This document shows, in pieces, positions 45,742-46,043 of a DNA stretch of 64,000 bases (the first letter of the stretch is position 1; each line of letters opens with the position of its first letter). The DNA lies in the NCBI GenBank assembly GCA_008508345.1, contig QNGE01003908.1, forward strand, positions 1 through 64,000, read 5' to 3'. The notes below the pieces were generated by a model. It ran no database searches and was not told the DNA's origin. It was given only the letters and a program-made list of their open reading frames with translations. The position numbers were made by a program, and so were the translations under genes. The stretch comes from Paragonimus westermani (lineage: Eukaryota > Platyhelminthes > Trematoda > Plagiorchiida > Troglotrematidae).

Positions 45742-46043
45742 TTTTCAAGTTGACCATCACTCACATTTGATCGCAGCGTTCGCATTCATATAGACTTTCC
45801 AGCCAAGCTCTTTCGAAAAGAAGCACTACACGGTTGCCTCATGATTGGAATGGCCGGAGTTCAAATCCCGGCTGTGGCGAGGATATGCACTACTGACGAG
45901 TTCTACGGAGAGCGAAACTCGAGTCTAGTGCTTCTTTTCGAAAAAGGCCGGCTGAAAAGTCTATCTGAATGCGAACGCTGCGATCAAATGTGAGTGATGG
46001 TCTACTTGAAAATAAACCAAATCCCCGACTACTCATCAGTAAT
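45742..46043 (+). mobile_element. Hammerhead SINE insertion, copy 2, with inverted 5' arm
   Basis: The 302-bp insertion is flanked by the 12-bp duplication ACAAAAAATATA (45730-45741, 46044-46055). The first 87 bp (45742-45828) are the reverse complement of 45926-46012, with seven differences. The sense part then runs from within the tRNA-like head (CACGGTTGCC), through a B box (AGTTCAAATCC) and an intact hammerhead, to the CATCAGTAAT terminus. The inner end of the inverted arm coincides with the predicted ribozyme cleavage site. It lies in the 3' part of RTE copy 2. Confidence 0.9.
45887..45931 (+). ncRNA. Hammerhead ribozyme in SINE copy 2
   Basis: Stem I GCACUA (45887-45892) with UAGUGC (45926-45931); core CUGACGA (45893-45899); stem II GUUCU-ACGG-AGAGC (45900-45913, five pairs with one U-G); GAA (45914-45916); stem III ACUC/GAGU (45917-45924); cleavage after C45925. 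Compared with the SINE dimer, a C-G pair in stem II has become U-G and the loop differs, while core and stems I and III are unchanged. Confidence 0.88.

What the first reader, a model, noticed from the sequence alone, without database searches (positions are those of the whole stretch)
45742..45931. Inverted 5' arm ends at the hammerhead cleavage site: a fossil of a self-cleaved retrotransposition template
In SINE copy 2, the first 87 bp are an inverted copy of the tail. The inner end of the arm (GCACTA, 45828) is the complement of the first nucleotides after the predicted cleavage point (UAGUGC, 45926), within one ambiguous base. In a twin-priming model the inner end of an inverted arm marks the 5' end of the RNA template. 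The coincidence therefore suggests that the inserted RNA had been cut by its own hammerhead. It also implies that the RNA contained a further unit downstream (tRNA head, hammerhead, tail), that is, a multimer or circle.
Basis: partly seen in the sequence, partly recalled or inferred. Interest (0 to 1): 0.88.

Follow-up and report, generated by a model that had tools for sequence, protein, structure and literature searches.

The report
Head-to-head insertion of hammerhead retrozyme
A small mobile element carrying a self-cutting RNA appears to have been copied into this spot from both ends at once; its inner seam falls at the RNA's cut point, but seams there are no commoner in this genome than at neighbouring positions, so it is not good evidence that the RNA had cut itself.

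Summary
Insert 45742-46043 is one insertion between exact 12-bp target duplications. Its inverted arm ends at 45828, complementary to the first base after the predicted hammerhead cut (45925/45926), with one ambiguous base. The element is part of a 431-nt retrozyme-like unit. A second, longer insertion (23544-24168, two hammerheads, 13-bp duplications) is also head-to-head, with its seam elsewhere. Of 40 genome copies not chosen for arms (one is the finding itself), 21 are head-to-head. Outer ends cluster at two sites, about +84-91 and +116-119 after the cut; 36 of 37 classifiable structures use one of each, like the two start sites and optional tail of Penelope-like elements. So two-ended priming on multimeric RNA is supported; a hammerhead-cut template is not. 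Inner ends are spread, and genome-wide pattern counts are 12 at the cut against 20, 10 and 13 at three nearby positions (95% upper limit 1.36-fold). Best reading: a new retrozyme family moved by Penelope-type machinery, mostly from RNA uncut at the hammerhead. The search for a Penelope partner did not complete.

The parts
45730..45741 (.). left target-site duplication ACAAAAAATATA
45742..45828 (-). inverted arm (short cDNA): outer end near start site 1 (about u89), inner end at u1-u2
45828..45886 (+). truncated head of the sense part (starts at u334; one base shared with the arm)
45887..45931 (+). type I hammerhead, 35 bits (gathering score 34); predicted cut 45925/45926
45932..46013 (+). conserved 3' region up to about start site 1
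46014..46043 (+). about 30-nt optional tail between start sites 1 and 2, present at this end of the insertion only (boundary approximate)
46044..46055 (.). right target-site duplication ACAAAAAATATA
23531..23543 (.). left target-site duplication TGATCTCATTTGG of the second element
23544..23608 (-). inverted arm of the second element, with tail; inner end at u54, not at the cut
23618..24168 (+). sense part of the second element, about 1.3 units, two hammerheads (23618-23662, 24049-24093)
23657..24087 (+). one 431-nt unit from cut to cut, used as coordinate frame u1-u431
24169..24181 (.). right target-site duplication TGATCTCATTTGG of the second element

Best explanation
This is a non-autonomous retrozyme-type element with a 431-nt unit carrying a type I hammerhead, inserted by Penelope-type machinery. 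Both strands of the target are cut with a stagger of about 12-13 nt. Each 3' end primes reverse transcription inside a sense RNA that is multimeric (or circular), one at start site 1 (about u84-91) and the other at start site 2 (about u116-119). The two cDNAs run upstream, stop at varied points or about where the other cDNA began, and are joined, in about half the cases at a short shared sequence; this gives the head-to-head arms. The seam of the copy at 45742-46043 falls at the hammerhead cut by coincidence, and the templates used are mostly uncut there. Shown: the structures, target duplications, paired start sites, spans longer than a unit, and no excess of ends at the cut in the counts made. 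Inferred: the Penelope enzyme, the two-strand priming, the joining step.
For: Exact 12- and 13-bp duplications around both window insertions; exact duplications of at least 8 bp at 18 of 46 structures against 14 of 1000 cross-paired flanks. 21 of 40 copies not chosen for arms are head-to-head, the finding among them. Of 46 structures, 37 have both outer ends in the two zones and 36 of these use one of each. Geometry fits Anolis Poseidon: the paper's numbers, starts at +111-118 and cut at +26 of the ORF, give +85-92 after the cut, and the tail lies between two start sites (PMC11167929). [quoted passage not shown] Long cDNA stops within 30 nt of the short cDNA's start in 8 of 16, P 0.0007 or 0.004 by the null used. 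21 of 45 seams are ambiguous by 1-5 nt, i.e. the two sides share those bases. Ends at the cut 12 against 20, 10, 13.
Against: No Penelope protein or partner was found: the GIY-YIG search did not complete, and of the 25 window reading frames of 120 aa or more the 12 scanned gave no RT or GIY-YIG match. 28 of 46 structures show no exact duplication of 8 bp or more, and 9 of 46 have an outer end outside the two zones. The zones were drawn after seeing the data. The count test has only three control positions, with slightly different anchors, one of them chosen after the result at the cut was known; it also counts plain 5' truncations and some small indels.
Confidence: 0.78

Rival explanations
1. 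One reading: the template had been cut by its own hammerhead, so the short cDNA ran off at u1 and fossilised the cut.
For: The arm here ends at u1-u2. In 45 resolved structures three end intervals cover u1 (L001, L028, L039) and L025 lies at u2-3; weight 3.35 in five positions against 1.44 expected, P = 0.058.
Against: Genome-wide counts: 12 ends at u1 against 20 at u7, 10 one base past the cut and 13 six bases past it; 5 of the 12 read GCACTACTGA, joined through the six bases shared with hammerhead stem I, so their end point is ambiguous. The long cDNA of this same insertion carries the hammerhead, so the RNA was uncut there. Of the 19 first-sample copies without an arm none starts at u1 (L031 starts 8 nt upstream). 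In the Anolis Penelope, hammerhead mutants insert as well in vitro (PMC11167929).
Confidence: 0.1
2. Self-priming: a cDNA or an antisense template folds back on itself and is copied, giving a head-to-head palindrome, as discussed for rotifer Penelopes.
For: Discussed in PMC3846280. Some seams are near-palindromic: L050 and, by eye, three further listed places with both arms reading past the cut and the same spacing of 198.
Against: The outer ends of the two arms differ by the tail in 36 of 37, and the arms mostly cover different lengths; a fold-back gives matching arms. Most seams join unrelated positions. The spacing predicted for fold-back on hammerhead stem I (about 145, my estimate) was not searched.
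Confidence: 0.08
3. Two separate insertions or a later inversion placed the copies head-to-head by chance.
For: The family is abundant (2255 first-look candidates).
Against: One exact duplication encloses the whole head-to-head structure in both window elements and an exact duplication of at least 8 bp does so in 18 of 46 in all; 88 and 79 such structures in two spacing ranges, none for the patterns read backwards.
Confidence: 0.02

Closest known systems
Metazoan retrozymes with type I hammerheads (Cervera and de la Pena 2020, PMC7229834; abstract, Results part 1 of 3 and Discussion read)
   Same: Type I hammerhead, short repeat unit of 150-450 bp, tandem copies, duplications longer than 4 bp; the paper already names Penelope-like elements as a strong candidate helper.
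   Different: The parts I read do not describe head-to-head arms or paired start sites; here those give structural evidence for Penelope-type insertion.
Penelope-like elements: rotifer Penelopes (PMC3846280, passages and Discussion read) and Anolis Poseidon (PMC11167929, parts 1-2 of 4 read)
   Same: Inverted copy at the 5' end, optional tail of about 31 bp at one of the inverted ends, short target duplications, hammerhead upstream of two internal start sites at the same distance.
   Different: No such coding region in the 302- and 625-bp window inserts; the unit is 431 nt.
Schistosoma SM-alpha hammerhead SINE (recalled, not read)
   Same: Small hammerhead-bearing flatworm repeat with a tRNA-like promoter (recalled).
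   Different: Not compared by sequence here.
L1 twin priming (recalled)
   Same: Two primed cDNAs joined head-to-head.
   Different: As recalled, L1 primes at a poly(A) end and at varied internal sites; here both primers use fixed internal sites.

Membership tests
Metazoan retrozyme | type I hammerhead | tested here: met
   Rfam RF00163 at 3 places; core conserved in 51 aligned stretches, the commonest core variant being the free position of CUGANGA
Metazoan retrozyme | unit of 150-450 bp in tandem | tested here: met
   431-nt unit; spans of 524-861 nt at six places among 40 loci and the window
Metazoan retrozyme | target duplication longer than 4 bp | tested here: met
   12 and 13 bp in the window; at least 8 bp at 18 of 46
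Metazoan retrozyme | no LTR, primer-binding site or polypurine tract | not tested
   no search made
Metazoan retrozyme | expressed as circular RNA | not testable with these tools
   no RNA data held
Penelope-like element (autonomous) | RT and GIY-YIG reading frame | tested here: not met
   no stop-to-stop frame of 200 aa or more overlaps the two inserts of 302 and 625 bp, which are too short for such a protein; a dependent element at most
Penelope-type insertion (as mechanism) | inverted 5' copy with tail at one end only | tested here: met
   36 of 37 classifiable structures, 46 in all
Penelope-type insertion (as mechanism) | start site about 85-92 nt after the hammerhead cut, and a second about 30 nt on | tested here: met
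   3' ends peak at u84-91 and u116-119 against values worked out from PMC11167929
Penelope-type insertion (as mechanism) | partner element sharing the start-site region | not tested
   PF01541 search did not complete
tRNA-derived SINE | tRNA-like head with A and B boxes | tested here: inconclusive
   B-box-like GTTCAAATCCC by eye; ARAGORN and Rfam do not call it
Self-cut template fossil | excess of inner ends at the cut | tested here: not met
   12 against 20, 10, 13; sequenced seams 3.35 against 1.44, P 0.058

The most novel reading that the evidence does not exclude
The insertion machine engages an uncut multimeric (or circular) retrozyme RNA at two fixed start sites, one for each target strand, so nearly every head-to-head insertion has one end with the 30-nt tail and one without. 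The hammerhead then serves RNA processing but not the supply of insertion templates; self-cut templates are at most a rare side route.
Probability: 0.5. Interest if true: 0.6.

Novelty: new member of a known kind. Interest (0 to 1): 0.42.

Why it matters
How metazoan retrozymes are inserted, and whether the hammerhead-cut RNA is the template, is open as far as I read; PMC7229834 only proposes Penelope elements as helpers. This family leaves many head-to-head insertions whose outer ends show where reverse transcription started and whose inner ends test whether cut RNA was used. The first agree with Penelope-type priming, and the second show no detectable use of cut RNA, in line with the in-vitro result for the Anolis Penelope.

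Tried and rejected
Rejected: a peak of inner ends at the cut. A first look at 20-odd arms suggested four or five at the cut; exact seams removed L022 (runs past the cut) and made L039 and L025 ambiguous, and genome-wide counts showed no excess. Rejected: a sense copy starting exactly at u1 (L031); it starts 8 nt upstream, and the apparent start was an artefact of the BLAST reference. A tail-only DNA search gave nothing, and the tool says very common words are skipped. A pattern scan of genome contigs gave 0; that collection holds bacteria and archaea, so this says little. Scanning 12 of 25 window reading frames for domains gave only a GPCR. Not obtained: the number of copies that read through the cut (denominator) and the GIY-YIG search, both unanswered to the end. 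Not searched: other spacing ranges of head-to-head structures, including the fold-back spacing of about 145.

Full report
What is there. The region 45742-46043 is one insertion between exact copies of the 12-mer ACAAAAAATATA. It begins with an inverted arm (45742-45828), goes on with a truncated head, a type I hammerhead (45887-45931, Rfam 35 bits against a gathering score of 34) and a 3' region, and ends with a tail of about 30 nt that the arm lacks. The arm is 91% complementary to the 3' region over 92 nt. Its inner end is u1-u2, where u1 is the first base after the predicted cut.

The real unit. The window holds a second insertion, 23544-24168, between exact copies of TGATCTCATTTGG. Its two hammerheads lie 431 nt apart, and copy L004 has the same period. 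I use the unit 23657-24087 as frame u1-u431. This second insertion also has an inverted arm, but its inner end is u54, followed by 9 extra nt. The tRNA-like head is suggested by a B-box-like stretch read by eye; neither ARAGORN nor Rfam calls it. In 51 aligned stretches the hammerhead core is nearly invariant, and its commonest core variant is the free position of CUGANGA.

Genome sample. Forty scored copies of 2255 first-look candidates became L001-L040; L001 is the finding itself, and the query came from its copy. Of these 40, 21 hold a head-to-head structure. Two spacing ranges of head-to-head tail anchors have 88 and 79 places, with none for the patterns read backwards; 50 places are listed in each, and the first 15 of each, in contig order, became L041-L055 and L056-L070.

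Outer ends. 3' ends of the aligned stretches peak at u84-91 and u116-119. Of 46 structures (L035 counted twice), 37 have both outer ends in these two zones, and 36 of the 37 use one of each (1 uses site 2 twice); 9 have an end elsewhere. The zones were set after looking. Exact duplications of at least 8 bp enclose 18 of 46, 14 of the 18 being 11-13 bp, against 14 of 1000 cross-paired flanks. [quoted passage not shown]), and in the Anolis element Poseidon cleavage and extension of both target strands, with reverse transcription starting at two adjacent internal sites that bound the tail (PMC11167929, parts 1-2 of 4 read). That paper gives starts at +111-118 and the hammerhead cut at +26 of the reading frame; the difference, +85-92, is the distance seen here.

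Template. Six aligned spans, of 524 to 861 nt, exceed the 431-nt unit, so the RNA was multimeric or circular. In 8 of 16 structures of the sample L001-L040 with both outer ends at start sites, the long cDNA stops within 30 nt of where the short cDNA began (P 0.0007, or 0.004 with a narrower null), as expected when both prime on one RNA a unit apart; in the other 8, the finding's copy among them, it does not. In the finding's own copy the long cDNA carries the hammerhead, so that RNA was uncut there.

The decisive question. In 45 resolved structures (81 cDNA ends with an outer end at a start site), inner ends are spread along the unit; a weighted 34.75 fall within 60 nt of the cut, and 3.35 in the five positions from two before to three after it, against 1.44 expected (P = 0.058). 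That includes the case that raised the question. In an earlier weighting the ten positions around the cut held 4.7, while u46-55 held 6.6 and the five positions -45 to -49 held 4.6. By eye, the 35 listed places not held as loci show ends near the cut only at C563 and C1124, both a few bases past it; the 35 show no clear one, though one arm at C200 diverges just past the cut and cannot be judged. Runs of N hide the seam in several of these places, and only 50 of 88 and 50 of 79 were listed. Genome-wide, antisense anchors followed at once by four mismatches count both arm ends and plain 5' truncations: 12 at u1, 20 at u7, 10 one base past the cut, 13 six bases past it. The u7 and six-past controls were fixed before the result at the cut; the one-past position was added after it. 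At least 2 of the 20 and 1 of the 10 look like one-base indels rather than ends. P of 12 or more given the control mean is 0.77, and the 95% upper limit is 1.36 times that mean (about 1.46 if those three are dropped, by hand). Five of the 12 read GCACTACTGA, that is, they are joined through the six bases that antisense u1-u6 shares with hammerhead stem I, so even these need not have ended at u1. The filter misses the finding's own copy and others whose next bases match by chance, in principle equally at the four positions.

Conclusion. Two-ended priming on a multimeric RNA is well supported; a self-cut template is not. The coincidence at 45828 is what a broad spread of ends gives now and then. 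A rare use of cut RNA cannot be excluded, and this copy could be one.

Known or new. Metazoan retrozymes are a described class, and Penelope-like elements were already proposed as their helpers (PMC7229834, abstract, Results part 1 of 3 and Discussion read). The held library has no paper joining 'hammerhead' with 'twin priming' or 'hammerhead ribozyme' with 'Paragonimus' (that host name was my guess and is untested). Further papers were seen as listings only. The family is a new member of a known kind. What it adds is structural evidence for Penelope-type insertion and a quantitative limit on the use of cut RNA. The missing piece is the partner element: the GIY-YIG search did not complete.

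Noticed in passing
L005, L046, L050, L056, L069 (inner ends 45-49 nt upstream of the cut); G000 C126 (= L050), C610, C726, C1109: Several inner ends fall just 5' of the hammerhead, and four listed head-to-head places with both arms reading past the cut share the spacing 198. Could be shared short identities, one duplicated master copy, or a real stop.
   Followed up: partly
window 23601-23624: TGATCGCACTAC is repeated twice in a row at the seam of the second insertion.
   Followed up: no
window 45980-46045: The start-site region has a weak predicted stem around an AC-rich loop, recalling the AC-rich stem loop at the Anolis start site; it folds no better than shuffles.
   Followed up: partly
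window 23574-23744: The inverted repeat scores 39.5 bits for a microRNA precursor family (MIR5635), far below its gathering score of 149; probably a by-product of the inverted repeat.
   Followed up: no
window 13968-15191 (+): 408-aa reading frame, rhodopsin-type GPCR (PF00001, 4e-13).
   Followed up: partly
window 45500-45523 (+) and about 46679-46708 (-): By eye, reverse-transcriptase-like motifs (YADD and FADD) flank the insertion; not tested by a search of these pieces.
   Followed up: no
window 9786-9866 (-): tRNA-Arg gene, anticodon gcg.
   Followed up: no
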